DNA of 11,740 bases from Desulfovibrio sp. (lineage in GTDB: Bacteria; Desulfobacterota; Desulfovibrionia; Desulfovibrionales; Desulfovibrionaceae): positions 1 to 11,740 of the forward strand of contig DONZ01000154.1 of NCBI GenBank assembly GCA_003512875.1. The letters are read 5' to 3'. Position numbers and translations under genes: made by a program. Position 1 is the first letter of the stretch. Each line of letters begins with the position of its first letter. Shown here piece by piece: positions 1 through 11,740 of the stretch. Under the pieces are notes generated by a model that worked only from the letters and a program-made list of their open reading frames with translations, was not told where the DNA came from and did no database searches.

Positions 1-897
1 GTTGTTATTCCGGCTTTGCACCTGCGGGACAATTTACAGCTCAGACCGGGGCAATATTCGCTTTTGATCAAAGGAAACCAAATCGCTACCGCGGAAATAC
101 TGATTGACCATTATTTGGCTATGGACCCCGGGAACGCCACAAAGAAAATCGACGGCATTGAAACCATGGAACCCGCGTTCAGCCTGCCGGCGCTTTGGAT
201 TACAGAAATGCAAAAAGAAGACGCAATGGTCGCAGGCTATACCGTTGTCGACCCGGCAACGGTCATAGCGACCCATATCACCGAAGTTTTCCGCCGCAAC
301 CTGTCGGAATTTCTCGGCAGGCAGGAAGTGCAGGCTTTGCTTGATACGCTTGCGAAAACCGCTCCCCGTGTCGTGGATGAACTGGTGCCCAATGTCCTGC
401 AATTGGGACAGGTGCAAAAAGTCCTGCAAAATTTGGTGCGCGAAAATGTAAGTATCCGTGATATGCTGACTATTGTGGAAACGCTGGCGGATTACGGTCA
501 AGCGAATAAGAACCCTGACACGCTGACGGAATTTGTGCGGGAACGCATGGCGAGAACGATTATCCGTCCTTATCTTGACGAAGAAAACGCACTCGTAATT
601 ATGACACTCGATCCTCAAGCGGACAGAACTATCCAAGAATCCGTTAGAACGACGGAGGGTGGAGCGTTTCTTGCATTGAATCCGGCTGTTGCGCAAAAAT
701 TTATTGCAAATATCAATCAAGTGGTGGATAATGCCGTGATGTTTTCAAGCCAACCTGTGCTTTTAACCTCGCCTATGATACGCCCGCACGTGGCGCAGCT
801 CATTATGCGTTTTCTGCCCAATGTGCCTGTCCTCTCCCAAGTTGAAATTCCTGCTGACATCCGTTTGCATTCAGCAGGGACAGTAGGAATTGAATAA
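1..897 (+). CDS. flhA: FlhA, flagellar type III export gate protein, C-terminal part (5' end outside window)
   Basis: This is the cytoplasmic domain of FlhA, the flagellar export-gate subunit whose soluble ring docks chaperone-substrate complexes and the switch from hook to filament export. The frame is open from base 1, so the gene begins upstream; the TTG at 16 is internal. About 298 of a usual ~700 residues are present, and the N-terminal membrane helices are missing. Recognisable stretches are HLRDNLQLRPGQY near the start, the MDPG segment, the conserved FLGRQEVQALLD helix, VPNVLQLGQVQKVLQNLVRE, RDMLTIVETLADYG, and the late block ending LPNVPVLSQVEIP. The C-terminus (AGTVGIE) is a normal short tail. 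The TAA stop shares one base with the flhF ATG (TAATG), which suggests translational coupling. The type III secretion homologue SctV/LcrD is possible by fold, but the flagellar neighbours settle it. Confidence 0.97.
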   Translation, partial: VVIPALHLRDNLQLRPGQYSLLIKGNQIATAEILIDHYLAMDPGNATKKIDGIETMEPAFSLPALWITEMQKEDAMVAGYTVVDPATVIATHITEVFRRNLSEFLGRQEVQALLDTLAKTAPRVVDELVPNVLQLGQVQKVLQNLVRENVSIRDMLTIVETLADYGQANKNPDTLTEFVRERMARTIIRPYLDEENALVIMTLDPQADRTIQESVRTTEGGAFLALNPAVAQKFIANINQVVDNAVMFSSQPVLLTSPMIRPHVAQLIMRFLPNVPVLSQVEIPADIRLHSAGTVGIE

Positions 898-1946
898 TGC
901 AAGTTAAGACCTATACCGGAAATAGTACGAAAGAAGTTCTCGACGCCATAAAAAACGAACTTGGCGGCGATGCCGTCATTCTTTCCAGCAGGGAGCGTCA
1001 AAAAGACGGCAGGCGTGTTTATGAGATAACTGCGGGAACGGAAAGGACGGAACAGAACGAGCTTAAAGAAAAGACGGGTTCTTCCGCGGTACCGAGCGGC
1101 TGGGACGACTGGCATAAGGAATGGAGCAAGCTTAAGGAGCATATCTATGCGCTCATGCAGCCCGCCCTGCAATTTGACAAGCTGACGCCCCACCAACGGG
1201 TCGCTTTGGAATATCTGCAGCGTGAAGGCGTTGAAGATGATGTTATCGTTGAATTTTACAATGTTTTATTGGCAAAAAAATCAGAGGAAGCTTCCATGCT
1301 CAAAGTTTTGGCTTCTTTTGTGCCGGTAAAAAGTTTTATGTTTGAAAACTATCCGCAGCGGCTGCATATTGTCACAGGTCCTTACGGCGTGGGGAAAACA
1401 AGCACGGTTCTGCGTCTTGCGCTGCTCAGAAAACAGCAAAATCCCCATCACCGCATCGCCTTTATCAATACGGACAGTTTGCGGGGCAATGGCAGGCTCG
1501 TATTGCGGCATTGGGCTGATTTGTCTGGTTTTCCTTACTTTGAAGCCCCTGATAAGGAGTCCATGTTTGCGGCTTTAAAAGCCTGCGGTGATGCGAATTG
1601 CATTTTTATTGACATGCAAGGGCTTGCCAAAAATGAAAAATTTGAGGGTAAATTGCGCATGCTCGGGATTGAATCCATGCAAGCCCATGTGCATATTGCG
1701 CTTTCACCTCATTATCAGTATTTAAAGGATATTTTAAAACGGTATAAAAGCGCTTTTCCGACAAGCGTCATTTGGACCAAGCTTGATGAAGCGGAACATT
1801 TTGCAGAGCTTGTCAATATTGCCGTTTGGACAGGAATGCCTATTTCCGCCTTATCTTTTGGCGCGGAATTGCAGGGAACATTAATACCCGCTGACGAAGC
1901 ACAAATCTGGCGGCTGATTTTAAAGCATCAGCTGCCGAAGGGATAG
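897..1946 (+). CDS. flhF: FlhF, SRP-family GTPase for flagellar placement, with divergent GTPase motifs
   Basis: FlhF is the third SRP-type GTPase, beside Ffh and FtsY. It marks the site and number of flagella, usually polar, and works with FlhG. The N-terminus (MQVKTYTGNSTKEVLDAI, then LGGDAVILSSRE) is the classic FlhF opening. A variable linker (about 45-80) and helical N domain (about 85-150) follow. In the G domain, G1 is intact (GPYGVGKTST, 161-170) and G4 is intact (TKLDE, 294-298). The usual DTYR of G2 reads NTDSLR (191-196), and the usual DTAGR of G3 reads DMQGL (239-243). The closing loop is also unusual (FGAELQGTLIPAD). The protein has 349 residues, slightly short for the family. 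An AGGA at 885-888 lies 8 bases before the ATG. It overlaps flhA by one base and precedes flhG by one base. Nucleotide binding looks possible; normal hydrolysis is doubtful. Confidence 0.94.
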   Translation: MQVKTYTGNSTKEVLDAIKNELGGDAVILSSRERQKDGRRVYEITAGTERTEQNELKEKTGSSAVPSGWDDWHKEWSKLKEHIYALMQPALQFDKLTPHQRVALEYLQREGVEDDVIVEFYNVLLAKKSEEASMLKVLASFVPVKSFMFENYPQRLHIVTGPYGVGKTSTVLRLALLRKQQNPHHRIAFINTDSLRGNGRLVLRHWADLSGFPYFEAPDKESMFAALKACGDANCIFIDMQGLAKNEKFEGKLRMLGIESMQAHVHIALSPHYQYLKDILKRYKSAFPTSVIWTKLDEAEHFAELVNIAVWTGMPISALSFGAELQGTLIPADEAQIWRLILKHQLPKG

Positions 1947-1947
1947 T

Positions 1948-2769
1948 ATGGATATAGATAATCAAGCAATGCCGAAAGTCATCACCGTTACGTCTGGCAA
2001 GGGCGGAGTCGGCAAAACAAATATTTCCGTTAATCTTGCCTGCTGTTTGGCGAAGCAGGGCAAACGCGTTATTCTTGTTGATGCGGATTTGGGGCTTGCG
2101 AATGTCGATGTCATTTTGGGTCTGACCCCTCAGTACAATATTTATGATTTGTTCAAAGGGAAAAATCTTTCTGAAATTTTATACGATACGCCTTACGGTT
2201 TTCAGATTTTGCCCGCCTCTTCCGGGGTGAGCGACATGATGACCCTTGAAACAGGGCAAAAATTGGAACTTTTGGAAGCGTTTGACGAATTTGACGAAAC
2301 CATAGATTATTTGCTTGTCGATACCGGCGCCGGCATTCATGACAATGTTCTTTACTTCAACGTGGCGGCGCAGGAGCGGCTGGTCGTCCTCACTACTGAA
2401 CCGACTTCCTTGACTGATGCGTATGCATTGATTAAAGTATTGAAGCAAAGGCATGGAGTGTCGACGTTTAAAGTTTTGATCAATGCTGCATCAAGCGAGT
2501 CAATGGCAAAAGAGATTTATTCGCGCCTTTATGCCGCATGCGACCATTTTCTTGAAGGTGTCAGCTTGGATTACTTAGGATTTGTTCCAAAAGACGCCGT
2601 CGTGCGTAAATCCATTATGGCGCAGGTTCCTTTTTGTATAGGCGAGCCGAATTCACAGGCGGCAAAAGCTTTGGAAAGGGTTGCAAATTTTGTGCAAAAA
2701 TGGGATAGTCCGGAAACTGTTGACGGCAATATCAAGTTTTTTTGGAAAAAACTTCTCTTTAGGGGATAG
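1948..2769 (+). CDS. flhG: FlhG (YlxH/FleN), MinD-like ATPase controlling flagellar number
   Basis: FlhG is a MinD/ParA-type ATPase that limits flagellar number by regulating FlhF and, in some bacteria, the flagellar transcription activator. The deviant Walker A motif is intact (SGKGGVGKTN, 16-25), followed by VDADLGLANVD (44-54) and the Walker B region LLVDTGAGI (122-130). The protein has 273 residues, normal for the family. The ten residues before the P-loop (MDIDNQAMPK) contain NQA but not the DQAxxLR activator helix known from Bacillus-type FlhG. The C-terminus (NIKFFWKKLLFRG, 261-273) can form a basic, aromatic amphipathic helix, as expected for the MinD-type membrane anchor. An AAGGGA sequence 4 bases upstream supports the ATG. 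The gene lies one base after flhF and two bases before fliA. A generic ParA is much less likely in this setting. Confidence 0.95.
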   Translation: MDIDNQAMPKVITVTSGKGGVGKTNISVNLACCLAKQGKRVILVDADLGLANVDVILGLTPQYNIYDLFKGKNLSEILYDTPYGFQILPASSGVSDMMTLETGQKLELLEAFDEFDETIDYLLVDTGAGIHDNVLYFNVAAQERLVVLTTEPTSLTDAYALIKVLKQRHGVSTFKVLINAASSESMAKEIYSRLYAACDHFLEGVSLDYLGFVPKDAVVRKSIMAQVPFCIGEPNSQAAKALERVANFVQKWDSPETVDGNIKFFWKKLLFRG

Positions 2770-2771
2770 GT

Positions 2772-3521
2772 ATGACGCCTTGGTTAGATATGGAAAATGG
2801 AGAGAGGGTTTGGGACGACTTTTCCTCTATTGAAAAAGAAATGCTCATAAAGCATTATGCGCCGCAAATCCGGTATCTTGCATACAGGATGAAGGTGAAA
2901 TTGCCTAAACATATTGACATATCCGAACTTATCAGTGCAGGTACTCTCGGGCTCATGGAGTCTTTGAAAAAATATCAGGCAGATTTGGGTATTCGCTTTG
3001 AAACGTATGCCGAAAGCAGAATCAGAGGGGCGATGCTTGATGAACTCAGACGTTTGGATTGGTTTTCGCGCGGGCTCAGGCAAAGGGTCCGGCAAATAGA
3101 TGAAGCCATGTGGCAGCTGGAGCAAGATCTTGGCAGACAGCCGACTATTCAGGAAGTGCATGAAAAAACAGGACTTTCTGAAAGAGAAATTCACCAAGGC
3201 TTGGAAGCTTTGCAAAGCCAGCTTGCCATTCCGCTGGACAGTATTGAAGACACGCTTGCCAATGAAGCCGACAGAAACGGTGAACCTTTCCACGATACTG
3301 TATTCAATGAATTATCCGAAAAAATTGCATCGCTTATCGACCGATTGACAGATAAAGAAAAATTGGTACTATCTCTTTATTACACTGAGGAACTGAATAT
3401 GAGGGAAGTTGCCGAAGTGTTAGGTGTGACAGAAGGCAGGGTGTCACAGCTTCATTCGCAAGCGATATTACGGCTGCGAAAGGAGTTTACCCATAATTTT
3501 GGTGAAGAGGATTTATTTTGA
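2772..3521 (+). CDS. fliA: FliA, flagellar sigma factor sigma-28
   Basis: This sigma factor directs RNA polymerase to late flagellar and chemotaxis promoters. Region 2 spans about residues 26-97, with ISELISAGTLGLMESLKKY and then FETYAESRIRGAMLDELRR, a hallmark of the FliA/WhiG group. Region 3 (about 105-160) includes LGRQPTIQEVHEKTGLS. Region 4 (about 185-238) ends in the helix-turn-helix LNMREVAEVLGVTEGRVSQL. At 249 residues it has the usual length. AGGGGA at 2761-2766, inside the end of flhG, gives a ribosome site 5 bases before the ATG, so translation is probably coupled to flhG. The ATG at residue 7 is an alternative start with less support. No anti-sigma FlgM gene is visible in the window. 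WhiG-type sporulation sigma is ruled out by context. Confidence 0.96.
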   Translation: MTPWLDMENGERVWDDFSSIEKEMLIKHYAPQIRYLAYRMKVKLPKHIDISELISAGTLGLMESLKKYQADLGIRFETYAESRIRGAMLDELRRLDWFSRGLRQRVRQIDEAMWQLEQDLGRQPTIQEVHEKTGLSEREIHQGLEALQSQLAIPLDSIEDTLANEADRNGEPFHDTVFNELSEKIASLIDRLTDKEKLVLSLYYTEELNMREVAEVLGVTEGRVSQLHSQAILRLRKEFTHNFGEEDLF

Positions 3522-3562
3522 TTAAATCTTATGAATTAAAAATTATTGCCGATGTGTTTTTT

Positions 3563-3568
3563 TATAGT
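3563..3568 (+). promoter_or_regulatory. Possible -10 element before cheY
   Basis: The 66-base gap between fliA and cheY is very A+T-rich and contains TATAGT, one mismatch from the sigma-70 -10 consensus, 20 bases before the cheY start codon. I see no good -35 at 16-18 bases upstream. A separate internal promoter for cheY-fliL and the next two genes is therefore only a possibility; read-through from fliA would also work. Confidence 0.25.
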
Positions 3569-3577
3569 CTAATAAAT

Positions 3578-3583
3578 GAGGGA
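3578..3583 (+). promoter_or_regulatory. Ribosome-binding site that decides the cheY start
   Basis: GAGGGA lies 4 bases before the ATG at 3588. An in-frame ATG at 3576 would overlap this site and has no ribosome site of its own, so the downstream ATG is preferred. Confidence 0.75.
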
Positions 3584-3587
3584 AATT

Positions 3588-3968
3588 ATGCCATTTGATC
3601 CGAATATGCAAGTGCTTGTTGTTGATGATTTTTCCACAATGCGCCGTATTGTGAAAAACATTCTTCGTCAATTAGGTTTTAATAATATTGTTGAGGCTGA
3701 CGACGGCACAACAGCTTGGGAAATTCTGCAAAAACAAAAAATCGACTTTATTGTTTCTGACTGGAATATGCCTCAAATGACAGGAATTGAACTTCTTAGA
3801 AAAGTTCGTGCTGACGAAAGAATCGGGCATTTACCATTTTTAATGGTCACGGCGGAAGCTCAGCAGGAAAACATTTTGGAAGCCGCCCAAGCGAAAGTTT
3901 CCAATTATATTGTAAAGCCTTTTACTGCGGATACGCTTAAAAAGAAAATCGATAAAATCTTCCCGTAA
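3588..3968 (+). CDS. cheY: CheY, single-domain chemotaxis response regulator
   Basis: This is a free-standing receiver domain of 126 residues that, when phosphorylated by CheA, binds the flagellar switch and changes rotation. All catalytic positions are present: the acidic pair D13-D14 (VLVVDDFSTMRR), phosphoacceptor D58 (SDWNMP), T88 (MVTAEA), the switch aromatic Y107 and K110 (VKPF). DDFSTMRRIVKNILRQLGF is typical of true CheY rather than a receiver cut from a larger regulator. No output domain follows. It sits 66 bases after fliA and 15 bases before fliL, so it belongs to the flagellar unit. No cheA or other che genes are visible, so its kinase must lie elsewhere. Other single-domain receivers cannot be excluded, but the match to flagellar CheY is strong. 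Confidence 0.93.
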   Translation: MPFDPNMQVLVVDDFSTMRRIVKNILRQLGFNNIVEADDGTTAWEILQKQKIDFIVSDWNMPQMTGIELLRKVRADERIGHLPFLMVTAEAQQENILEAAQAKVSNYIVKPFTADTLKKKIDKIFP

Positions 3969-3983
3969 TAAAAGAGGATAATC

Positions 3984-4700
3984 GTGAGCCAAACTCAAGA
4001 AAAAGTCACGCAAAAAATTGAAAGCGCCAGTGACGAGAATTTGCCAGTTTCTGCCGAACCGAATGCTCCGGCAGAAAAAGGAAAGGAATTTCTTGACTTA
4101 GCAAAGAATAAAGTTGAGTTGGATCTTGAAGATGCTCCTTTTTTAAACGAAGAACCGGAAGAGCAGGAACAAGTTGCCGAGGAAAAAGCAGAACAAGCCG
4201 CTGAGAGCAAAAGCGATAAACAGCAAGAGGAAGTAAAACCCAAAAGCAAGAAAAAGCTTTTTCTCATCGGAGGCGGGGTTGCCGTTCTTTTGCTTGCGGT
4301 TATCGGTTTTTTCGTGTATGATATGCTTTTTACGGAAGAGCCTATTCTGCAAAACGTAATTGTCATTTCAAGTCCGGAGGTCCGCACGCCTCCGAAAGTC
4401 CATGAATTTAAACTCGACCCTTTTGTTGTGCAATGCGTCGACAGTTCGGGAAAAATTCATTTTCTAAAGGGAAGTTTCATTTTAAGCACGGGAAATTTTG
4501 AAGTGTTTCATGAAATTTCCAATAATCAAAAAGTGTTGCGTGACGCTATTTATTATTATCTGGAAATTCAGGATCCGGAGATTTTATTGAATTCCATTAA
4601 CCATCAGCAAATTAAAAAAGGATTGTTGGATACTGTCAATAAGTATATCATGAATGGCAGTGTTGATGATTTGTTCATAGATAGTCTTTTGGTTTTTTAA
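3984..4700 (+). CDS. fliL: FliL-like flagellar basal-body protein with a long acidic cytoplasmic extension
   Basis: FliL is a single-span inner-membrane protein whose periplasmic domain rings the stator units and supports torque. One membrane helix is clear at about residues 92-114 (LFLIGGGVAVLLLAVIGFFV). The periplasmic part (about 115-238) has the family pattern: HEFKLDPFVVQ, then FLKGSFILSTGN, LRDAIYYYL, and a tail ending FIDSLLVF. The first 91 residues are rich in Glu, Lys, Gln and Ala and look disordered. In ordinary FliL the membrane helix lies close to the N-terminus, so this extension is notable. The start is GTG, chosen because AAGAGGA (3972-3978) ends 5 bases upstream. The gene follows cheY by 15 bases. 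Family identity is from recognised pattern; the sequence is divergent, but context agrees. Confidence 0.87.
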   Translation: MSQTQEKVTQKIESASDENLPVSAEPNAPAEKGKEFLDLAKNKVELDLEDAPFLNEEPEEQEQVAEEKAEQAAESKSDKQQEEVKPKSKKKLFLIGGGVAVLLLAVIGFFVYDMLFTEEPILQNVIVISSPEVRTPPKVHEFKLDPFVVQCVDSSGKIHFLKGSFILSTGNFEVFHEISNNQKVLRDAIYYYLEIQDPEILLNSINHQQIKKGLLDTVNKYIMNGSVDDLFIDSLLVF

Positions 4701-4718
4701 TATTTTTAAGGAGGGTAT

Positions 4719-5033
4719 ATGAGTAATACGATAATCCCGCTCCTTAATGCGCAGCAGCAAGGAATGTCCACGACAATAACCAATATTGCCACGCGGCAAG
4801 AGGTTTTTGCCCAAGTTGCGCAATATGTCGCTGCCGAAGTTGTTGCGGAAGAGAATAAAAAATTGGATAAGGCTGCTGACGACCCGGAAGCGTCCCTGGT
4901 TAACCGTGACGGCGGAGGGCAAAACGAACCTCAGGAAAATTTTCAGCAGCGCCATGAAAAGGAAGAAGATGTCGAAACAAGCCCTTCCTATCATAATCCT
5001 TTAGCAGGCAAGCTCTTTAACGCAAAGGTATAG
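4719..5033 (+). CDS. Small protein of unknown function in the flagellar operon
   Basis: I do not recognise a family for this 104-residue protein. It has an excellent ribosome site (AAGGAGGG, 4708-4715) shortly before the ATG, tight spacing on both sides (18 bases after fliL, 8 bases before the next gene) and the same strand, all supporting a real gene. Residues 1-50 look helical and contain a hydrophobic run (VFAQVAQYVAAEVVAEE). Residues 50-90 are polar, charged and probably disordered, with a GGG at 65-67. The last residues (NPLAGKLFNAKV) return to a hydrophobic pattern and could be a docking motif. There is no signal peptide and no membrane helix, so it is probably cytoplasmic. A role in flagellar assembly or regulation is inferred from position only. 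Confidence 0.75.
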   Translation: MSNTIIPLLNAQQQGMSTTITNIATRQEVFAQVAQYVAAEVVAEENKKLDKAADDPEASLVNRDGGGQNEPQENFQQRHEKEEDVETSPSYHNPLAGKLFNAKV

Positions 5034-5041
5034 AGAAACAA

Positions 5042-5458
5042 ATGAATTTGCTTATTTTAGCCGCAATCACCATTGCCGAATTATTCCTTATCGTTCTTGT
5101 ATTGTTTTTTTTCAGAAGGCTGCGCAAGTCCGAACAAGTGATGCTCGCTATGCAGAACAATCAGGATGAACTTATGGAGCGGATGGTGCGCAATGCTAAT
5201 TTGGAGCAGGAGCTTGTGGCTACTTTCATGCAGCGTCAGGCGGAACTTGAACGTCTTAACGTCGCTATGGAAGAGCGTATTTTCATGCTTAAAAAATTGC
5301 TTAAACAAGCGGAAGAAATAAGCCATTCACCGTATCTGCTCCGTGAAGTGATCATGAATTCACGGAAAAAAGGCATGAATACCGATATGATCGCCCATAA
5401 AACAGGGCTTGCGAAAGATGAGATTGAATTGATTTTGAAAAAAGAAAATTTACTTTAA
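5042..5458 (+). CDS. Membrane-anchored coiled-coil protein with SwrB-like layout, end of flagellar cluster
   Basis: This 138-residue protein has one N-terminal membrane helix (about 3-24, LLILAAITIAELFLIVLVLF) followed by basic residues (RRLRK), so its bulk should face the cytoplasm. Residues about 30-95 form a charged helix likely to be a coiled coil. The C-terminal 40 residues (about 99-135) look like a small helix-turn-helix: LLREVIMNSRKKGMNTDMIA, then HKTGLAKDEIELIL. The same three-part plan and a similar end are known from Bacillus SwrB, encoded at the end of a flagellar operon and reported to activate the flagellar export apparatus. DUF2802-type flagellar-locus proteins have a related tail. 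These likenesses are recalled, not searched. The ribosome site (AGAGAA) is weak, so translation may depend on the preceding gene. Function is inferred from layout and position. Confidence 0.78.
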   Translation: MNLLILAAITIAELFLIVLVLFFFRRLRKSEQVMLAMQNNQDELMERMVRNANLEQELVATFMQRQAELERLNVAMEERIFMLKKLLKQAEEISHSPYLLREVIMNSRKKGMNTDMIAHKTGLAKDEIELILKKENLL

Positions 5459-5468
5459 TTCTTGAATA

Positions 5469-5497
5469 TTGACACATAGCAAAGCTTTTTGTATTTT
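5469..5497 (+). promoter_or_regulatory. Sigma-70-type promoter for the DHH/CBS/nucleotidyltransferase gene
   Basis: TTGACA at 5469-5474 is a perfect -35 hexamer. It is followed after 17 bases by TATTTT at 5492-5497, matching the -10 consensus at 4 of 6 positions. Transcription would start near 5504, about 18 bases before the ATG at 5522. The position, between the last flagellar gene and an unrelated RNA gene, fits an independent housekeeping promoter. Confidence 0.65.
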
Positions 5498-5517
5498 AAA
5501 AAAAAGTGCAAAGGCTT
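5479..5517 (+). repeat. Imperfect direct repeat around the promoter
   Basis: GCAAAGCTT (5479-5487, inside the promoter spacer) is repeated as GCAAAGGCTT (5508-5517, just before the start codon), with starts 29 bases apart. The two copies flank the -10 element, so they could be regulator half-sites. They could equally be chance in an A+T-rich gap. Confidence 0.3.
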
Positions 5518-5521
5518 ATGA

Positions 5522-8332
5522 ATGAATACGTACCGCCCCAAAAAAACTCTTGTTACCTGCCACAGAAATGCCGATTTTGACGCATTGTGTTCCTTATTCA
5601 GCATGTCTTTTTTTTATCCGGATGCTCAAATCGTCTATCCAGGCTCACAGGAAAAAATCGTACAAGCTTTTGTGCATGAAGTCATCGACCCTCTTTTTAA
5701 TTATGTCAACCCCAAGGATATCGATTTTGAAGGCATAGAACGGCTTGTTGTTGTGGATACTTCCCATACGAGCCGTTTGACGCATATTCAGCCTCTTTTG
5801 GATAGGGCGGGTTTTAAGCATGATGTTGAAGAAGAACAGGAAAATCAAGAGTTAGAAGTCATTATTTACGACCATCACCCTCAAACCAATATCAAGGCAA
5901 GCGGGGGAAGAATTGAAATCGTCGGCTCGACGTGTACGCTTATTTGCGAAGAGCTGCAGCGAAATAACAGGAATATTCACGATGAGGCTTTGTGTTTGCT
6001 CGGACTTGGTCTTTATTCCGATACCGGCGCTTTCACATATAATTCTGTCACCACGAGGGAGGCACAGGCTTTGTCATGGCTTTTGACACAGGGTTTCGAG
6101 CCTGATTTTGTCACTGCCTATGTCAATAAGCAAATCAATAAGGAACAGCTTTTCGCTTTGAACGATTTGGTGGAATCTGCGCAGTTTTATGATGTCGCAG
6201 GCATTAAATTCATTCTTGCAAGCTCGAAATTTGAAGAATGCTTGTATGATATCGCTTCGCTGACCCCTTTGTTTTTAGAAATATATCCTTGTGACGTTCT
6301 TTTCATGGTCGCCGCCATGGACGGCAAAGTGCAGGTTGTTGCACGCAGCAAAGATTATTCCGTTGATGTGGGGCAAATCATGGCTCTGCTTGGCGGCGGC
6401 GGGCATGCTTACGCGGCGGCGGCTACCGTGAAAGACAAGAGTATGCATGAAGTTTTGACGTTCATTGAAAGCCAGATCACGTTATTTTCCCATAAAGACA
6501 AGACTGTCCGGCGCCTTATGTCCGCTCCCGTAATGGGGGTCGATGAAAACGACTGTATCGAGCATGCCGCGGATTTGATGACGCGCTACGGCTTTAAGGC
6601 TGTGCCTATTTGGAATGAGCAGACGAAACGCTGTGCGGGTATTTTGGATTATCAAACATCTGCGAAAGCTGTGAAGCATGGGCTCGGAAAATATTCCGTA
6701 ACCCAATTCATGAACAGGAATATCCGTTGTGCTACGCTTGAAACGGATTTGCAGACACTTCTCGACATTATCATTGAAGACAAGCAACGCCTTGTGCCTA
6801 TTGTGGATTGTACGCCTTTGAACGAGGAAGAGGAAATTGCGGAAGAAACGCTCAGGGATTTGTCTGTTATCGGGGTTGTAACCAGAACGGACCTTGTTAC
6901 TTTGTTTTTAGATGAACAAAATACTTCCGCGACCAAGAAAAAAGCACATCGTCTTGCAAAGCGGAACGTGCAGAGAATTTTAAGATTGCGTACGCCGAAA
7001 GAATGCGTGAAAGCCCTTGAAATAGTCGGGCAATTGGCTGATGAGATGGGAGTTTCCGTTTATGTGGTCGGGGGCTTTGTGCGTGACCTCATCATGGACA
7101 GGGAAAAATGGCGCTGGCCCAATATGGATATTGATCTTGTGGTTGAAGGGGATGGCATTGTATTCGCCCATTATTTGGCGGAACTTTTGGGCGGGCGCGT
7201 TCGTGAACATAAGGAATTTATGACGGCTATCGTACTTTTTCCGTCCAGCAGGCTGCTGGATAAAAACGATTTTCAGTTTGACCATGAGGAGCAGGAGCTG
7301 CGTATCGACGTTGCGACAGCACGTTTGGAATATTATCAAAGTCCTGCCGTGCTTCCCACGGTTGAACTTTCTTCTATCCGAATGGATTTGACACGGCGCG
7401 ATTTTACTATCAACGCCATGGCTATAAAGCTGAATACCTCAAGCTTCGGGGAACTTGAAGATTATTTTGACGGACAAGGCGATATCAAACAAAAAACCAT
7501 TCGTATCCTGCATGCTCTCAGTTTTGTTGATGACCCCACAAGGGCTTTGCGGGCAATTCGTTTCGAGCAGCGGTATGATTTTAAAATTTCCATGCAATGT
7601 GAACGGCTTATCAGAAATGCTGTTGCCCTGCAATTAATTCAAAAATTAGACGGCAAGCGTATTTTGGCAGAACTTGAAATCACTTTGCAAGAAGAAAGTG
7701 TGCTTGAATGCATTTTGCGCATGCAGGATTTTAATTTGTTGGAAGAAATCCATTCCAGTTTAAGCTTATCCCACGCTAATGATGTTGATTTTGTGACAGA
7801 AGCGTACAGGGTGCTTGATTGGTATGATATGCTCTATCTTACTGAAAAAATAGATAATCTTTTATTCTTTTTACTCGTGATGAGCAAAGGGGTTTCCACC
7901 GGCGAGTTTAAAGGGCTTCTTGAACGGTTGTGCCTTTCTTCGGTGCAGGTTGAGAAATATTTGTTTATCCGCTCCCAGCTTATCGGTGTTCAGCCGAAAG
8001 TTGAAGCATGGTTTGAAAAGAAACGCCCCATGAGTTCTTTACATCTTCTGTTAAAAAATGTTGCAATGGAAGCTATTTTATATATGGTTGTCCGTTTGGA
8101 AAAAGAACACGGGGAAGAATTGAAGCGGCAGCTTTCTTATTATATTTATCAGGTCCGTCATGAAAAAATAGATATTACCGGCAATGATATTTTACGGCTT
8201 GGCGTTGAACAAGGGGCAAAGGTCGGCGAAATTTTGCAAAAAGTTCTCTTGGCTAAAATTGACGGCATTATTGCGGGGTATGACGAGGAAATTGTTTACG
8301 CCGAAGGGCTTATCAATAAGATTATCATATGA
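5522..8332 (+). CDS. DHH phosphoesterase / CBS pair / tRNA nucleotidyltransferase (poly(A) polymerase) fusion
   Basis: Three modules lie in 936 residues. First, a DHH/DHHA1 phosphoesterase (about 8-320) with all metal-binding motifs: HRNADFDA (14-21), VVVDT (76-80), DHHP (117-120), SDTGAF (166-171) and GGGGH (291-295). Second, two CBS domains (about 330-385 and 392-460), which in other proteins bind adenosine nucleotides. Third, a class II nucleotidyltransferase (about 495-720) with VVGGFVRD (515-522), metal ligands D536 and D538, RRDFTINA (625-632) and DDPTRALRAIRF (670-681), followed by a helical RNA-binding part ending with ITGNDILRLG. In CCA enzymes the template motif is EDxxR; here it reads DDPTR. 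This fusion is known in deltaproteobacteria and Aquifex-like bacteria and covers CCA-, A-adding and poly(A)-adding enzymes, so specificity cannot be read here. The ATG at 5518 is out of frame. AAAGG lies 7 bases before the chosen start. Confidence 0.93.
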   Translation: MNTYRPKKTLVTCHRNADFDALCSLFSMSFFYPDAQIVYPGSQEKIVQAFVHEVIDPLFNYVNPKDIDFEGIERLVVVDTSHTSRLTHIQPLLDRAGFKHDVEEEQENQELEVIIYDHHPQTNIKASGGRIEIVGSTCTLICEELQRNNRNIHDEALCLLGLGLYSDTGAFTYNSVTTREAQALSWLLTQGFEPDFVTAYVNKQINKEQLFALNDLVESAQFYDVAGIKFILASSKFEECLYDIASLTPLFLEIYPCDVLFMVAAMDGKVQVVARSKDYSVDVGQIMALLGGGGHAYAAAATVKDKSMHEVLTFIESQITLFSHKDKTVRRLMSAPVMGVDENDCIEHAADLMTRYGFKAVPIWNEQTKRCAGILDYQTSAKAVKHGLGKYSVTQFMNRNIRCATLETDLQTLLDIIIEDKQRLVPIVDCTPLNEEEEIAEETLRDLSVIGVVTRTDLVTLFLDEQNTSATKKKAHRLAKRNVQRILRLRTPKECVKALEIVGQLADEMGVSVYVVGGFVRDLIMDREKWRWPNMDIDLVVEGDGIVFAHYLAELLGGRVREHKEFMTAIVLFPSSRLLDKNDFQFDHEEQELRIDVATARLEYYQSPAVLPTVELSSIRMDLTRRDFTINAMAIKLNTSSFGELEDYFDGQGDIKQKTIRILHALSFVDDPTRALRAIRFEQRYDFKISMQCERLIRNAVALQLIQKLDGKRILAELEITLQEESVLECILRMQDFNLLEEIHSSLSLSHANDVDFVTEAYRVLDWYDMLYLTEKIDNLLFFLLVMSKGVSTGEFKGLLERLCLSSVQVEKYLFIRSQLIGVQPKVEAWFEKKRPMSSLHLLLKNVAMEAILYMVVRLEKEHGEELKRQLSYYIYQVRHEKIDITGNDILRLGVEQGAKVGEILQKVLLAKIDGIIAGYDEEIVYAEGLINKIII

Positions 8333-8356
8333 TGCAGGAAACGGGGAGGTGTTATC

Positions 8357-9577
8357 ATGGAGGGCAATAAGGAATTGTATTATGAGTATCAAAAAAATTA
8401 TCATAAAAAGATAAGAGAAATAAAGCAGCGTGTTGCAAACGGTCAGAAAATCAGGGTGGGGTTTTTGGTATGCGCCCTTCCTTCTTTTGCGGCTTTGCCA
8501 ATGTATCGGGCAATGCAGAAAGAGGAGCTTTTTGAAACCAAAATAGTGATGATTCCCAGTGTGTACAATATCAGAAATGCTTCCGACATCCATTTGGAAG
8601 CGGAGAATGTGTTCGGCAAAGAACAGGTGATGACAAGCTATGTTGATGAAAACAGCTTTAGAAGTTTTGACGGCAATTTCGATATTATTTTTTTTTCCAA
8701 TCCTTATGATAAGATTGTCCTTCCTATTCATTCAATCGAGCATTTTGCAAAATTGGGCGTTTTAACCGTTTATATCGGATACGGATATTTAACTTCCAAT
8801 CACAAGCTTGATTTTTTTAGAAAAGGGCATGAAATGAGCTGCTTGTGGAAATATTATCTCGACAGTAATGCCGGTTATGCGGAATATGCCGCCCATTCTC
8901 CTTTGAAAGGAAGAAACGCCAAGTTTTTAGGCTATGCCAAGATGGACAGTTTTATTCCTTTGCCTGTTGCGCCGAAAGGAAAAAAACGTATTATCATCAC
9001 AGCCCATCACAGCATGCAGATTTCTGCAGAGTCTATCGGAATACAGTATTCCTGTTTTTTGCGTTATTATGATTTTTATTTGCGTCTTGCCAAAATGTAT
9101 CCCGGTGTCGAGTTTGTTTTTCGTCCTCATCCGCTTTGGGAAACTGTTTTGCATGAATTTTGGCCGCAGGGTATGATTGATGAATATTACCGAAAAATCG
9201 AAGAATTGCCTAATATGTTTTTGCATACCGATTCAAATTATTTTGATTTGTTCCAAGCTTCTCATGCCATGATAAACGATTGCGGATCCTATAATGCGGA
9301 ATACATGTTCACGGGCAAGCCTCTTTGCATGCTTTCCAAAGGGGATGTGAAGGATAAGGAAAATTATAATGAATATTTTGCGTTGCAATGCATAAAACAT
9401 CATTATAAGGCCTATTCCGAACTTGATATTATTGCTTTTATCGAAGAAATTGTTTTAAAAGAAAATGATTTTATGAAAAATGACCGTATGGCGTTTTGGG
9501 ATAGGGAAATAAAAGGGAATTGGCCGCATTCGTCGCAATATGTTCTTGAGGATTTAAAAGCGTCGGTTTTAGGATAG
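8357..9577 (+). CDS. GT-B enzyme related to CDP-glycerol glycerophosphotransferases (TagF-like)
   Basis: The 406-residue protein has the pattern of the CDP-glycerol:poly(glycerophosphate) glycerophosphotransferase fold. GYAKMD (192-197) sits where TagF-type enzymes carry GYPRxD, AHHS (216-219) sits at the usual PTWR position, FRPHP (255-259) matches the conserved basic HP loop, and NDCGSYNAEYMFTGKPL (307-323) matches the DYSS...D...KP donor-binding block. The first ~30 residues are a charged helix, then a Rossmann-like strand begins (IRVGFLVCALPSF). There is no membrane helix or signal peptide, so it should act at the inner face of the membrane. GGGGAGGT at 8343-8350 is a strong ribosome site. 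It starts 24 bases after the preceding gene with no terminator between them. Donor and acceptor are unknown; transfer of a CDP-linked polyol-phosphate or sugar to a surface glycan is inferred. The PTWR replacement makes donor specificity uncertain. Confidence 0.75.
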   Translation: MEGNKELYYEYQKNYHKKIREIKQRVANGQKIRVGFLVCALPSFAALPMYRAMQKEELFETKIVMIPSVYNIRNASDIHLEAENVFGKEQVMTSYVDENSFRSFDGNFDIIFFSNPYDKIVLPIHSIEHFAKLGVLTVYIGYGYLTSNHKLDFFRKGHEMSCLWKYYLDSNAGYAEYAAHSPLKGRNAKFLGYAKMDSFIPLPVAPKGKKRIIITAHHSMQISAESIGIQYSCFLRYYDFYLRLAKMYPGVEFVFRPHPLWETVLHEFWPQGMIDEYYRKIEELPNMFLHTDSNYFDLFQASHAMINDCGSYNAEYMFTGKPLCMLSKGDVKDKENYNEYFALQCIKHHYKAYSELDIIAFIEEIVLKENDFMKNDRMAFWDREIKGNWPHSSQYVLEDLKASVLG

Positions 9578-9580
9578 CAC

Positions 9581-10180
9581 ATGGTTAAATTTATTTTTGA
9601 TTTAGACGGGACATTAACTAAAAAAGAAACATTGCCGATTATTTCCGATTACTTTTCTTTACAGGAAAAAATTGCGGAATTGACCACGCAGACGGTGCAA
9701 GGCAACATTCCTTTTGTGGAATCTTTTATTCGACGTGTTTCAATACTTGGGAAATGTCCTGTTTCGGAAGTTTCTGAATTGCTTGCAAAGGTGGAATTGC
9801 ATGAAAACGTGCATTCTTTCATTTCAGCCAATCCGGAACATTGCGTTATTGCAACAGGAAACCTGCTGTGTTGGGTTGATAAGACAATTCGGAAAATCGG
9901 CTGCAAGGCTTATTGCTCGGAAGCATCGGTTGAAAATGATACTGTGACGAAAATCATCTTTATTTTAAGAAAAGAAGCTGTTGTCGATTATTATAAAAAG
10001 CAAGGTGATTTTGTTGTATTCATCGGTGATGGCAACAATGATATGGAAGCTATGCGTTTGGCGGATGTTTCCATTGCGACGGGACTGATTCATGCTCCTG
10101 CAAACAGCGTGCTCGCTGTTGCGGATTATGCGGTATACAACGAGGAGGCTTTATGCCGTTTGCTCAATCAGTTATTATAA
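9581..10180 (+). CDS. HAD-family phosphatase, SerB-like (subfamily IB)
   Basis: This 199-residue protein is a haloacid-dehalogenase-type phosphatase. Motif I is DLDGT (7-11, nucleophile D7 and acid D9), motif II is the threonine of IATGN (T92), a lysine near 131 can serve as motif III, and motif IV is GDGNNDMEA (149-157). The helical insert at about 15-75 corresponds to the cap seen in phosphoserine phosphatase-type enzymes. It is a little short for SerB itself and lies in no serine operon, so a different small phosphorylated substrate is likely. AGGA lies 6 bases before the ATG, and only 3 bases separate it from the preceding gene. Its last 28 bases overlap the next gene. Similar SerB-like phosphatases occur in capsule loci, including those for phospho-substituents; that parallel is from memory. 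Confidence 0.85.
   Translation: MVKFIFDLDGTLTKKETLPIISDYFSLQEKIAELTTQTVQGNIPFVESFIRRVSILGKCPVSEVSELLAKVELHENVHSFISANPEHCVIATGNLLCWVDKTIRKIGCKAYCSEASVENDTVTKIIFILRKEAVVDYYKKQGDFVVFIGDGNNDMEAMRLADVSIATGLIHAPANSVLAVADYAVYNEEALCRLLNQLL
10142..10148 (+). promoter_or_regulatory. Ribosome-binding site inside the HAD gene for the overlapping nucleotidyltransferase
   Basis: GAGGAGG lies 4 bases before the ATG at 10153, inside the 3' end of the HAD gene. Its strength argues that the overlapping start is real and that the two proteins are made in a coupled way. Confidence 0.8.
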
Positions 10181-10788
10181 GCTGTGCGGGAATAGGGTCC
10201 AGGCTTGGTCTTGCAACGACCAAAGCCCTTATCAATATCAACGGGAAAAGCCTTATCCGTTGGCAGCTGGAACAGTTTAATGATGTGGAAGACGTACGTG
10301 TCGTTGTCGGTTTTCAAGCCCAAGATGTGATTGATGAAGTTCTTGCTTATAGAAAAGATGTTGTTTTTGTATATAATCATTCGTATTTCGAAACAAAAAC
10401 AGGAGCCAGCTATTATTTGGGAGCGAGGCATGGCGCGGAATACGCTTTTGAATACGACGGCGATTTGCTTGTTCATCCCGATGACTTAAAAATGTTGCTC
10501 AATCTTGACGGGGAATGGATAGCGTATTCAGATAAAATGTCAGATGACGCTGTTTATGTTAAAGTTAATCCGCAAGGCGAGGTTGTTTCTTTCTCAAGAG
10601 AACAGGGGGATTTTGAATGGACCGGGCCCTGTTGCATCAAAAAACAAAAATTGCGGTATCATTCCGGAAATGTTTTTAATCAGTTGGAACCGTATTTGCC
10701 CATGAAAGGCGTTAAAATCAGGGCTTGTGATATTGATACCTTTGAAGATTACCAAAGAGCCGTGGTTTGGGTACAAAAAAATTTATAG
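10153..10788 (+). CDS. Nucleotidyltransferase of the sugar-phosphate/phosphocholine cytidylyltransferase (LicC-like) type
   Basis: The 211-residue protein has a short GT-A nucleotidyltransferase fold. It opens with IISCAGIGSRLGLATTKAL (8-26), the nucleotide-binding signature with basic residues R17 and K24. DVRVVVGFQAQDVIDEV (47-63) follows, then the metal-side strand DGDLLVHPDD (102-111), and DIDTFEDYQRA (193-203), where the aspartates normally bind magnesium. Such enzymes join a phosphorylated small molecule to NTP, giving CDP-, UDP- or other activated donors. The size and lack of a C-terminal beta-helix favour a LicC-like cytidylyltransferase over GlmU or RmlA, and the glycerophosphotransferase-like neighbour makes a CDP product attractive. 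Both points are inference. It starts 28 bases before the HAD stop, in another frame, with its own strong ribosome site. The substrate cannot be told from sequence. Confidence 0.83.
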   Translation: MPFAQSVIISCAGIGSRLGLATTKALININGKSLIRWQLEQFNDVEDVRVVVGFQAQDVIDEVLAYRKDVVFVYNHSYFETKTGASYYLGARHGAEYAFEYDGDLLVHPDDLKMLLNLDGEWIAYSDKMSDDAVYVKVNPQGEVVSFSREQGDFEWTGPCCIKKQKLRYHSGNVFNQLEPYLPMKGVKIRACDIDTFEDYQRAVVWVQKNL

Positions 10789-10798
10789 TTTCGATTTT

Positions 10799-10802
10799 GG
10801 AG
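10799..10802 (+). promoter_or_regulatory. Ribosome-binding site that decides the methyltransferase start
   Basis: GGAG lies 6 bases before the ATG at 10809. The frame is also open from a TTG at 10767, inside the preceding gene, but that codon has no ribosome site and would add 14 residues unlike the family. The ATG is preferred. Confidence 0.7.
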
Positions 10803-10808
10803 ATCAAT

Positions 10809-11453
10809 ATGAATGGGAATGCATTGGATTTTTTTCATACTTTGGCTAAAAAAGACGGGATTGAACCTGATGTTGTAAAATTTTCAAAGAGCAATGATTT
10901 TTCTGCATTCGATATGGATTTTGTTAAGCCATATCTCGGTTGTTCTGTCGACTGGTTGGATGTGGGGGCGGGTACCGGTTTGCTTATCAACGGGTTACAT
11001 CAAAAGGTTAGAAACGTCGTTGCCATAGAGCCTGTTGAAGAATTTTCAAATTTTATTGTCAAAGCTGAAAATGTGAGCGTTATTAATGAAACCCACAGTG
11101 GGTACATAGAAAAATATGCGGATATGCCCTTTGAACTTATCACTTGTTTCGGGTTTATTCAATATTTAAACACTCAAGAAGCGCTTGATTTTTATAAGAA
11201 GTTTTATCCGCTTTTAAAAGAGAACGGAAAATTTATCGTTAAAAATCAATTCGGCGTCCAAGGTGATGTTGTTGTCGATACTTTTTCCGAAGCGCTGCAA
11301 TCTGTCTATTATTCCGAATACAGAACGCTGGAGCATGAGAAAAAGCTGATGGCGGAAGCAGGTTTTAAAAATTTTGAAGTTGTGGATATTTATCCGCCTG
11401 AATGCAGTAAATGGGATAATACGCATTATTTTGCAATAGTTGCAGAAAAATGA
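10809..11453 (+). CDS. Class I SAM-dependent methyltransferase
   Basis: The protein has 214 residues from the ATG. Motif I, which binds S-adenosylmethionine, is WLDVGAGTGLL (49-59). The acidic residue of motif II is E74 (VVAIEP). A later strand (FELITCFGFIQYL, 108-120) corresponds to motif IV, followed by LLKENGKFIVKNQ (135-147), typical of small-molecule methyltransferases of the UbiE/TehB-like group. There is no RNA- or DNA-binding extension and no membrane helix. It lies 20 bases after the nucleotidyltransferase gene on the same strand, so it probably acts on the same product or its precursor, for example by O- or N-methylation. The substrate is unknown. Local base composition is notably A+T-rich compared with the flagellar genes. 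Confidence 0.87.
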   Translation: MNGNALDFFHTLAKKDGIEPDVVKFSKSNDFSAFDMDFVKPYLGCSVDWLDVGAGTGLLINGLHQKVRNVVAIEPVEEFSNFIVKAENVSVINETHSGYIEKYADMPFELITCFGFIQYLNTQEALDFYKKFYPLLKENGKFIVKNQFGVQGDVVVDTFSEALQSVYYSEYRTLEHEKKLMAEAGFKNFEVVDIYPPECSKWDNTHYFAIVAEK

Positions 11454-11699: not shown

Positions 11700-11740
11700 G
11701 GAACCTTAGCTCAGTTGGTAGAGCTACCGGCTCATAACCG
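11700..11740 (+). tRNA. tRNA with anticodon CAT, probably elongator tRNA-Met (3' part outside window)
   Basis: The 5' acceptor strand is GGAACCT (11700-11706), then T8 and A9, D stem GCTC/GAGC (11709-11712 and 11721-11724) around the loop AGTTGGTA, anticodon stem ACCGG (11726-11730), and the seven-base loop CTCATAA (11731-11737) with anticodon CAT at 11733-11735. The next three bases, CCG, begin to close the stem before the window ends. The gene starts with G rather than C and its anticodon stem lacks three consecutive G-C pairs, so it is not initiator tRNA. An Ile2 tRNA with modified CAT cannot be fully excluded from the visible part. Confidence 0.9.

What the first reader, a model, noticed from the sequence alone, without database searches (positions are those of the whole stretch)
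8357..11453. Four-gene cassette for a possible nucleotide-activated, methylated phospho-modification
A TagF-like GT-B transferase, SerB-like HAD phosphatase, LicC-like nucleotidyltransferase and SAM methyltransferase are packed with gaps of 3 and 20 bases and one 28-base overlap. Seen in sequence: motifs and spacing. Family knowledge: nucleotidyltransferases of this type make activated donors, and TagF-like enzymes transfer polyol-phosphates. Inference: the four genes make and attach one small, possibly methylated, phosphate-linked group to a surface glycan, capsule, LPS or flagellin. Campylobacter capsule loci for O-methyl phosphoramidate combine a SerB-like phosphatase with a cytidylyltransferase, a loose parallel. 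I know of no described pathway with exactly this set, and only one transferase is present, so the set may be minimal.
Basis: partly seen in the sequence, partly recalled or inferred. Interest (0 to 1): 0.72.

Follow-up and report, generated by a model that had tools for sequence, protein, structure and literature searches.

The report
Type A-like flagellin decoration cassette
Four adjacent genes in a gut sulfate-reducing bacterium match the kind of gene set that attaches a methylated amino acid, through phosphate, to the sugar on flagella of Clostridioides difficile and Pseudomonas aeruginosa, so the finding is real and extends a known but rarely reported pathway to a new group.

Summary
In detail: four genes, gaps of 3 and 20 bases, one 28-base overlap. 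HAD and nucleotidyltransferase are 36% and 34% identical to PA1089 and PA1090, with overlapping genes in both; the methyltransferase match is weak; the transferase folds like TagF and aligns by profile with PA1091's phosphotransferase part. The cassette follows a flagellar gene run here, but in most relatives it lies elsewhere. Best explanation: it makes CDP-(N-methyl)threonine, or a close analogue, and transfers the phospho-amino acid to a surface sugar, most likely on flagellin. Not shown: amino acid, sugar, acceptor; no core glycosyltransferase was found beside it. The nucleotidyltransferase is patchy: 12 of 288 family genomes, 1 of 395 over the phylum, the query itself. Novelty: new member of a known kind.

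The parts
8357..9577 (+). CD0244-like / TagF-like GT-B phosphotransferase (proposed: moves phospho-amino acid from CDP donor to a glycan)
9581..10180 (+). HAD-IB, SerB/ThrH-like; counterpart of PA1089 and, by description, CD0241 (proposed: makes the phospho-amino acid)
   Evidence: 36% over 196 aa to PA1089; best PDB profile hit M. jannaschii phosphoserine phosphatase 2.1e-26, ThrH 1rku 5.3e-7; E16 and R52 invariant in 9 of 9 aligned
10153..10788 (+). LicC-like cytidylyltransferase; counterpart of PA1090 and, by description, CD0242 (proposed: CTP + phospho-amino acid to CDP-amino acid)
   Evidence: 34% over 208 aa to PA1090; LicC 1jyk 2.6e-10; 28-base overlap with HAD gene
10809..11453 (+). 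SAM methyltransferase; possible counterpart of PA1088/CD0243 (proposed: N-methylates the amino acid). Alternative start TTG 10767
   Evidence: 25% over 80 aa to PA1088, E 8e-9; shared C-terminal stretch
1..4700 (+). context: flhA (partial), flhF, flhG, fliA, cheY, fliL
   Evidence: Pfam FHIPEP, ParA/MinD type, sigma-70, Response_reg, FliL; FlhF by NCBIfam, under its cut-off; flhG, fliA and cheY named from domain type and position
5522..8332 (+). context: A-adding tRNA nucleotidyltransferase (DHH-CBS-PolyA_pol)
   Evidence: NF041569 6.5e-193, below its cut-off; Pfam
11700..11740 (+). context: 5' end of a tRNA-Met gene, cut by window end
   Evidence: tRNA-Met at the corresponding place in G680 (L147 8267-8342) and G001 (L042 10484-10559); not called in the cut window

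Best explanation
The cassette is a Type A-like phospho-amino-acid tailoring pathway. The HAD protein makes (or moves phosphate onto) a phospho-amino acid, most likely phosphothreonine; the LicC-like enzyme joins it to CTP, giving a CDP-amino acid; the methyltransferase N-methylates it; the TagF-like transferase moves the phospho-(N-methyl)amino acid to a sugar, most likely one O-linked to flagellin. Shown here: gene set, homology, gene order, predicted fold of the transferase. Inferred: every reaction, threonine, the sugar, flagellin. The reaction order is the published model for C. difficile, whose enzyme activities are themselves hypotheses.
For: Same four families as cd0241-0244. Against the P. 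aeruginosa b-type locus: HAD 36%, nucleotidyltransferase 34%, overlapping genes in both (28 and 25 bases), MT weak but significant, transferase by profile. CD0244 is reported to resemble TagF and UDP-GlcNAc 2-epimerase; the window transferase's best fold matches are these two. HAD keeps E16 and R52 in 9 of 9 sequences; in the profile alignment they fall on E20 and R56 of M. jannaschii phosphoserine phosphatase, substrate-binding residues by recall, as expected for an amino-acid substrate. 3 of 120 listed transferase relatives are fused to GT2 glycosyltransferases, as PA1091 is. Position behind a flagellar gene run in G000, G680, G001, and both characterised loci are flagellar.
Against: No glycosyltransferase beside the cassette; none of the 10 GT2 matches of G000 lies on its cassette or flagellin contigs; in the complete same-species genome G680 the only glycosyltransferase seen near flagellins is a GT8 gene 2.8 kb from one of five (10 of 35 ORFs there scanned); PA1091 has no match in G000 at E<=0.001. 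In 9 of 12 genomes no homologue of the window's flagellar genes is in the fetched stretch. Foldseek's 50 listed rows are mainly 2-epimerases without TagF. Window MT and transferase are remote from PA1088 and PA1091. HMMs favour SerB over ThrH. C. difficile sequences could not be compared.
Confidence: 0.68

Rival explanations
1. Same chemistry, other acceptor: the phospho-amino acid is put on LPS, O-antigen, capsule or another surface glycan, and the flagellar position is incidental.
For: In 9 of the 12 family genomes no homologue of the window's flagellar genes was found in the fetched stretch, 5 to 20 kb, several cut by contig ends. G571's copy lies among GT2, ABC-exporter, GDP-mannose dehydratase and LicD-like genes; G004's beside thiamine genes; a Gastranaerophilales genome has the pair beside a radical SAM gene; PMC4441256 reports the pair in Helicobacter hepaticus away from flagella (passage).
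Against: In the window's species and G001 the cassette starts 24-40 bases behind the tRNA nucleotidyltransferase gene that follows the flagellar run; both characterised systems act on flagellin.
Confidence: 0.27
2. The activated small molecule is not threonine but another amino acid or amine phosphate (serine, a D- or allo-amino acid, choline, aminoethylphosphonate).
For: LicC and PntC (6pd1) are the nearest solved nucleotidyltransferases; an Asp/Glu racemase family gene lies beside or near the pair in 3 of 12 genomes (G015, G571, G559).
Against: HAD keeps the two phosphoserine-phosphatase residues; no choline kinase, PEP mutase or racemase among the window's genes; the nearest characterised systems use threonine.
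Confidence: 0.3
3. O-methyl phosphoramidate-type (Campylobacter) pathway.
For: Both involve a cytidylyltransferase and a methyltransferase (recalled).
Against: No glutamine kinase or amidotransferase among the window's genes; HAD and nucleotidyltransferase have clear counterparts in the b-type locus. Campylobacter sequences were not compared.
Confidence: 0.02
4. The HAD protein is a plain phosphatase and the phospho-amino acid comes from elsewhere, for example from a kinase.
For: HMMs score it as SerB (60 bits, under that model's cut-off) above ThrH (17.7 bits); in the PDB profile search phosphoserine phosphatases also lead.
Against: cd0241 and pa1089 mutants lose the phospho-amino acid, though an older pa1089 mutant showed a mixture; the gene is with the nucleotidyltransferase in 12 of 12.
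Confidence: 0.3

Closest known systems
C. difficile Type A flagellin glycan genes cd0240-cd0244
   Same: HAD, LicC-like nucleotidyltransferase, methyltransferase and a separate TagF-like transferase, in a flagellar locus (by description)
P. aeruginosa b-type flagellin genes pa1088-pa1091
   Same: HAD and NTase homologous with overlapping genes; MT and phosphotransferase remotely similar
   Different: There the transferase is one 1694-aa chain with a GT2 domain and lies directly before fliC
Lic phosphocholine pathway (LicC)
   Same: nucleotidyltransferase family and CDP-activation logic (PMC6697681 passages)
   Different: no LicA- or LicD-type gene in the window; HAD and MT instead
Pnt phosphonate tailoring (PntC)
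   Same: LicC-type activation of a small phosphorus compound for surface transfer (PMC6697681 passages)
   Different: no PEP mutase or aminotransferase in the window; 6pd1 scores lower than LicC

Membership tests
Type A / b-type flagellin modification | CD0241/PA1089-type HAD protein | tested here: met
   36% over 196 aa to PA1089, E 7e-48; CD0241 itself not compared
Type A / b-type flagellin modification | CD0242/PA1090-type nucleotidyltransferase | tested here: met
   34% over 208 aa to PA1090, E 6e-35; overlaps the HAD gene as in P. aeruginosa; CD0242 not compared
Type A / b-type flagellin modification | CD0243/PA1088-type methyltransferase | tested here: inconclusive
   25% over 80 aa, E 8e-9; shared C-terminal stretch; orthology not settled since SAM methyltransferases are many
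Type A / b-type flagellin modification | CD0244-type (TagF-like) phosphotransferase | tested here: met
Type A / b-type flagellin modification | core-sugar glycosyltransferase (CD0240 or the GT part of PA1091) | tested here: inconclusive
   10 GT2 matches in G000, none on the cassette or flagellin contigs; PA1091 search finds none in G000 at E<=0.001; G680 not searched for GT2 as a whole
Type A / b-type flagellin modification | genes in a flagellar locus | tested here: met
   window, G680, G001; not seen in the other 9 of 12
Type A / b-type flagellin modification | phospho-N-methylthreonine on O-linked sugar of flagellin | not testable with these tools
   needs mass spectrometry or NMR
O-methyl phosphoramidate pathway | glutamine kinase and amidotransferase beside the cytidylyltransferase (recalled) | tested here: not met
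   no such family among the 13 main window ORFs scanned; two small ORFs have no family; rest of genome not searched
Lic phosphocholine pathway | choline kinase LicA and transferase LicD with LicC | tested here: not met
   no such family among the window ORFs scanned; rest of genome not searched
Pnt phosphonate pathway | PEP mutase in the cluster | tested here: not met
   no such family among the window ORFs scanned; rest of genome not searched

The most novel reading that the evidence does not exclude
The overlapping HAD/nucleotidyltransferase pair is a portable CDP-amino-acid-making module exchanged among gut bacteria of several phyla, a third tailoring route beside the phosphocholine (Lic) and phosphonate (Pnt) ones. 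It is plugged into interchangeable transferases (CD0244-like, PF04464, LicD) and acceptors, flagellin being only one; in racemase-bearing relatives the amino acid may be D- or allo-configured.
Probability: 0.4. Interest if true: 0.62.

Novelty: new member of a known kind. Interest (0 to 1): 0.42.

Why it matters
In 2014 the Type A genes were reported as clustered, outside C. difficile, only in P. aeruginosa PAO1, and no CD0244 orthologue was found beside the others in any other organism (PMC4441256, passage). Here a lineage of Desulfovibrionaceae carries all four kinds, with a separate CD0244-like gene, behind a flagellar gene run. That gives new enzymes for testing the unproven step (CDP-threonine) and suggests that gut commensals may share a motility-related flagellin decoration with C. 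difficile. Close relatives of the nucleotidyltransferase in a Gastranaerophilales genome and a Bacillota species make phospho-amino-acid decoration worth looking for in phosphoproteomes.

Tried and rejected
Pfam, PDB profile search and BLASTP gave nothing useful for the transferase; only profile and fold comparison did. ThrH membership of the HAD protein, as the C. difficile paper proposes for CD0241, is not favoured over SerB by HMM scores. By tblastn at E<=1e-5 no phage record holds the nucleotidyltransferase and one plasmid record does, an 847-kb P. aeruginosa record carrying the flagellar b-type locus. A core glycosyltransferase beside flagellin was sought and not found (in the two G680 flagellin stretches 10 of 35 ORFs were scanned with Pfam, the rest only looked at). 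Foldseek's 50 listed rows are mainly UDP-GlcNAc 2-epimerases and kin, none named TagF; the realignment puts TagF level with them. Epimerase activity is disfavoured by the paper's argument that cd0244 loss leaves GlcNAc on flagellin. The Enterobacteriaceae survey hit for 'cd0244' was a false match to domain number cd02440.

A methyltransferase motif pattern was run on 938 ORFs of overlapping, redundant loci: 22 matched, by position all copies of the cassette or G003 C25 methyltransferases, but the pattern as written missed the window's and G680's own MT (Ala for Leu) and both G559 methyltransferase regions. The nucleotidyltransferase tree used 25 rows (23 different), 11 of them picked by me from the 120 listed hits; 4 of 20 inner branches are well supported and the tool warns of long branches (G559, PA1090, G556, G023, G463).

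Full report
WHAT IS THERE. The window is most of contig C148 (12,424 bases) of a draft genome, G000 (1.73 Mb, 80% complete). On the + strand the window carries the end of flhA, then flhF, flhG, fliA, cheY and fliL type genes, two small ORFs without a Pfam family, an A-adding tRNA nucleotidyltransferase and the four genes. The first gene begins 24 bases after the tRNA nucleotidyltransferase gene. The only terminator-like site listed on the + strand between 8332 and 11453 is one inside the HAD gene, and such sites are no commoner than in shuffles (11 found, 12.6 expected). A tRNA-Met gene follows. A single-contig genome of the same species, G680, has the same arrangement, the four proteins 99.5-100% identical.

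THE KNOWN PATHWAY. C. difficile Type A glycan is GlcNAc on flagellin joined by phosphodiester to N-methyl-L-threonine, made by CD0240 (glycosyltransferase) and CD0241-CD0244. Of PMC10714395 I read the abstract with introduction, the model section and the discussion and passages: the authors hypothesise CD0241 as phosphoserine:threonine phosphotransferase (PSP/ThrH-like), CD0242 as CTP:phosphothreonine cytidylyltransferase, CD0243 as N-methyltransferase and CD0244 (TagF-like, also similar to UDP-GlcNAc 2-epimerase) as the phosphothreonine transferase. Passages of PMC11833859 give N,N-dimethylthreonine and a deoxyhexose for P. aeruginosa, by pa1088-pa1091, PA1091 combining glycosyltransferase and CD0244-like parts. 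The window has one gene of each of the four kinds.

DIRECT TEST. The P. aeruginosa locus was fetched from a plasmid record (L067): methyltransferase, HAD, NTase, a 1694-aa protein, B-type fliC. I take these as pa1088-pa1091 from gene order and the papers. Against it the window's HAD is 36% identical over 196 aa (E 7e-48), the NTase 34% over 208 (6e-35), the MT 25% over 80 (8e-9). The transferase shows no significant BLASTP match, but its family profile aligns over 202 columns with PA1091 210-433 (probability 84%, E 7e-6), overlapping PA1091's PF04464 region 263-496. HAD and NTase genes overlap there by 25 bases. Two methyltransferases of the same-genus genome G003 are 32% and 25% identical to PA1088 over nearly full length, and window-type and PA1088-type methyltransferases share a C-terminal stretch of the form S-x-E-[LI]...Y-x3-YR, with SEAL in the window. 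Among the 120 listed of 170 profile hits for the transferase, three (P0162, P0236, P0241) carry a GT2 domain in the same chain, as PA1091 does. C. difficile proteins themselves could not be reached.

DISTRIBUTION. At E<=1e-20 the NTase is in 12 of 288 genomes of the family and in 1 of 395 spread over the phylum, the query itself. In the 12 (G000, G680, G001, G003, G004, G015, G023, G463, G556, G559, G571, G683): a HAD match beside the NTase 12 of 12 (in G003 cut by contig ends, in G463 only its later part). A SAM methyltransferase nearby 10 of 12 (not seen in G023, G683; frame broken and one gene away in G004; convergent in G015; one gene away in G571; two genes upstream of HAD in G559, where it lacks the shared motif). 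A CD0244- or PF04464-type transferase next to HAD 7 of 12 (G000, G680, G001, G004, G015, G556, G559; in G015 and G556 32% and 26% identical to the window's, in G559 recognised by PF04464 with only a 51-residue match); the same seven have all four. Five lack it there; G003 has a relative about 9 kb away beside an aminotransferase, a methyltransferase, a TagD-like cytidylyltransferase and two LicD genes, and G571 has a LicD-like gene next to its methyltransferase. Several contigs end near the genes, so absences are weak. Of 13 HAD/NTase overlaps measured, 9 are 28 bases (window, G680, G001, G004, G023, G463, G556, G571 and the Gastranaerophilales genome), 2 are 43 (G015, G683) and 2 are 25 (G559, P. 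aeruginosa); G003 was not measured.

FLAGELLAR OR NOT. In G000, G680 and G001 the cassette stands behind the flagellar run; in the other 9 of 12 no homologue of the window's six flagellar genes turned up in the fetched stretch (E<=1e-5; an earlier ORF search gave one 27% CheY-type match in G683). In G004 it is beside thiamine genes, in G571 among glycan-export and nucleotide-sugar genes, and in a Gastranaerophilales genome the pair is beside a radical SAM gene. The 2014 paper noted the pair in Helicobacter hepaticus without flagellar genes (passage). G680 has five flagellin-size matches and one FlgL-size match. Around the flagellins the only glycosyltransferase recognised is a GT8 gene 2.8 kb from one of them, beyond a U32 peptidase gene; 10 of the 35 ORFs of those two stretches were scanned. 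None of G000's 10 GT2 matches is on a contig with the cassette or a flagellin, but the contigs are short. So flagellin is the likeliest acceptor, not an established one.

ORIGIN. The window NTase is 74% identical to that of a Gastranaerophilales genome and to one named Anaeromicropila herbilytica (P0076), more than to G023 or G571 in its own family (57%, 44%). G559's NTase is 42% identical to PA1090 and 33% to the window's, and the two group in a tree of 25 rows, though both are long branches about which the tool warns. This suggests more than one horizontal acquisition. The cassette's G+C is 0.39 against 0.44 for window 1-8332, a weak sign.

NEW HINT. An Asp/Glu racemase family gene (PF01177) lies near the pair in G015, G571 and G559 (3 of 12). 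It fits an amino-acid substrate and raises the possibility of D- or allo-amino acids there; the window has no racemase beside the cassette.

PRINT STATUS. Searches (listings with abstract starts, capped at 10 to 20 rows each) showed no paper on this gene set in Desulfovibrionaceae; most subscription papers are not held. Other surveys may exist.

VERDICT. Real, coherent and explained: a new member of a known, rarely reported kind. Confidence 0.68 in the pathway as stated; my estimates are about 0.85 that the genes are of the Type A kind, and about 0.6 each for threonine and for flagellin.

Noticed in passing
L151 4538-5245, L044 8513-9244, L152 7066-7851: Asp/Glu/hydantoin racemase family genes (PF01177) beside or near the HAD/nucleotidyltransferase pair in three genera.
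   Followed up: partly
L068 (G003 C25) 5287-10918: Second transferase relative with class V aminotransferase, PA1088-type methyltransferase, TagD-like cytidylyltransferase and two LicD genes: a possible sister phospho-decoration cluster with another activation enzyme.
   Followed up: partly
L152 9175-11037 (G559): 620-aa protein with PF04464 phosphotransferase and methyltransferase regions in one chain, in a cluster whose HAD and NTase resemble PA1089/PA1090.
   Followed up: partly
L043 10439-12620 (G004): B12-binding radical SAM gene between the nucleotidyltransferase and a methyltransferase whose reading frame is broken.
   Followed up: no
L147 1024-7950 (G680), downstream of the tRNA-Met: Prophage-like genes (D5_N type, DnaG zinc ribbon, baseplate OB domain, PAAR with DUF6402) near the tRNA beside the cassette.
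   Followed up: partly
L048 3271-3876 (G002): A lone HAD relative (48%) next to what look like thiamine genes in a genome without a nucleotidyltransferase match, the same kind of neighbourhood where G004 keeps the cassette.
   Followed up: no
L153 10654-14815 (G680): Four flagellin genes in tandem; the window's own draft genome shows only two matches of this kind on one short contig (C83), the second partial and partly read as N.
   Followed up: no
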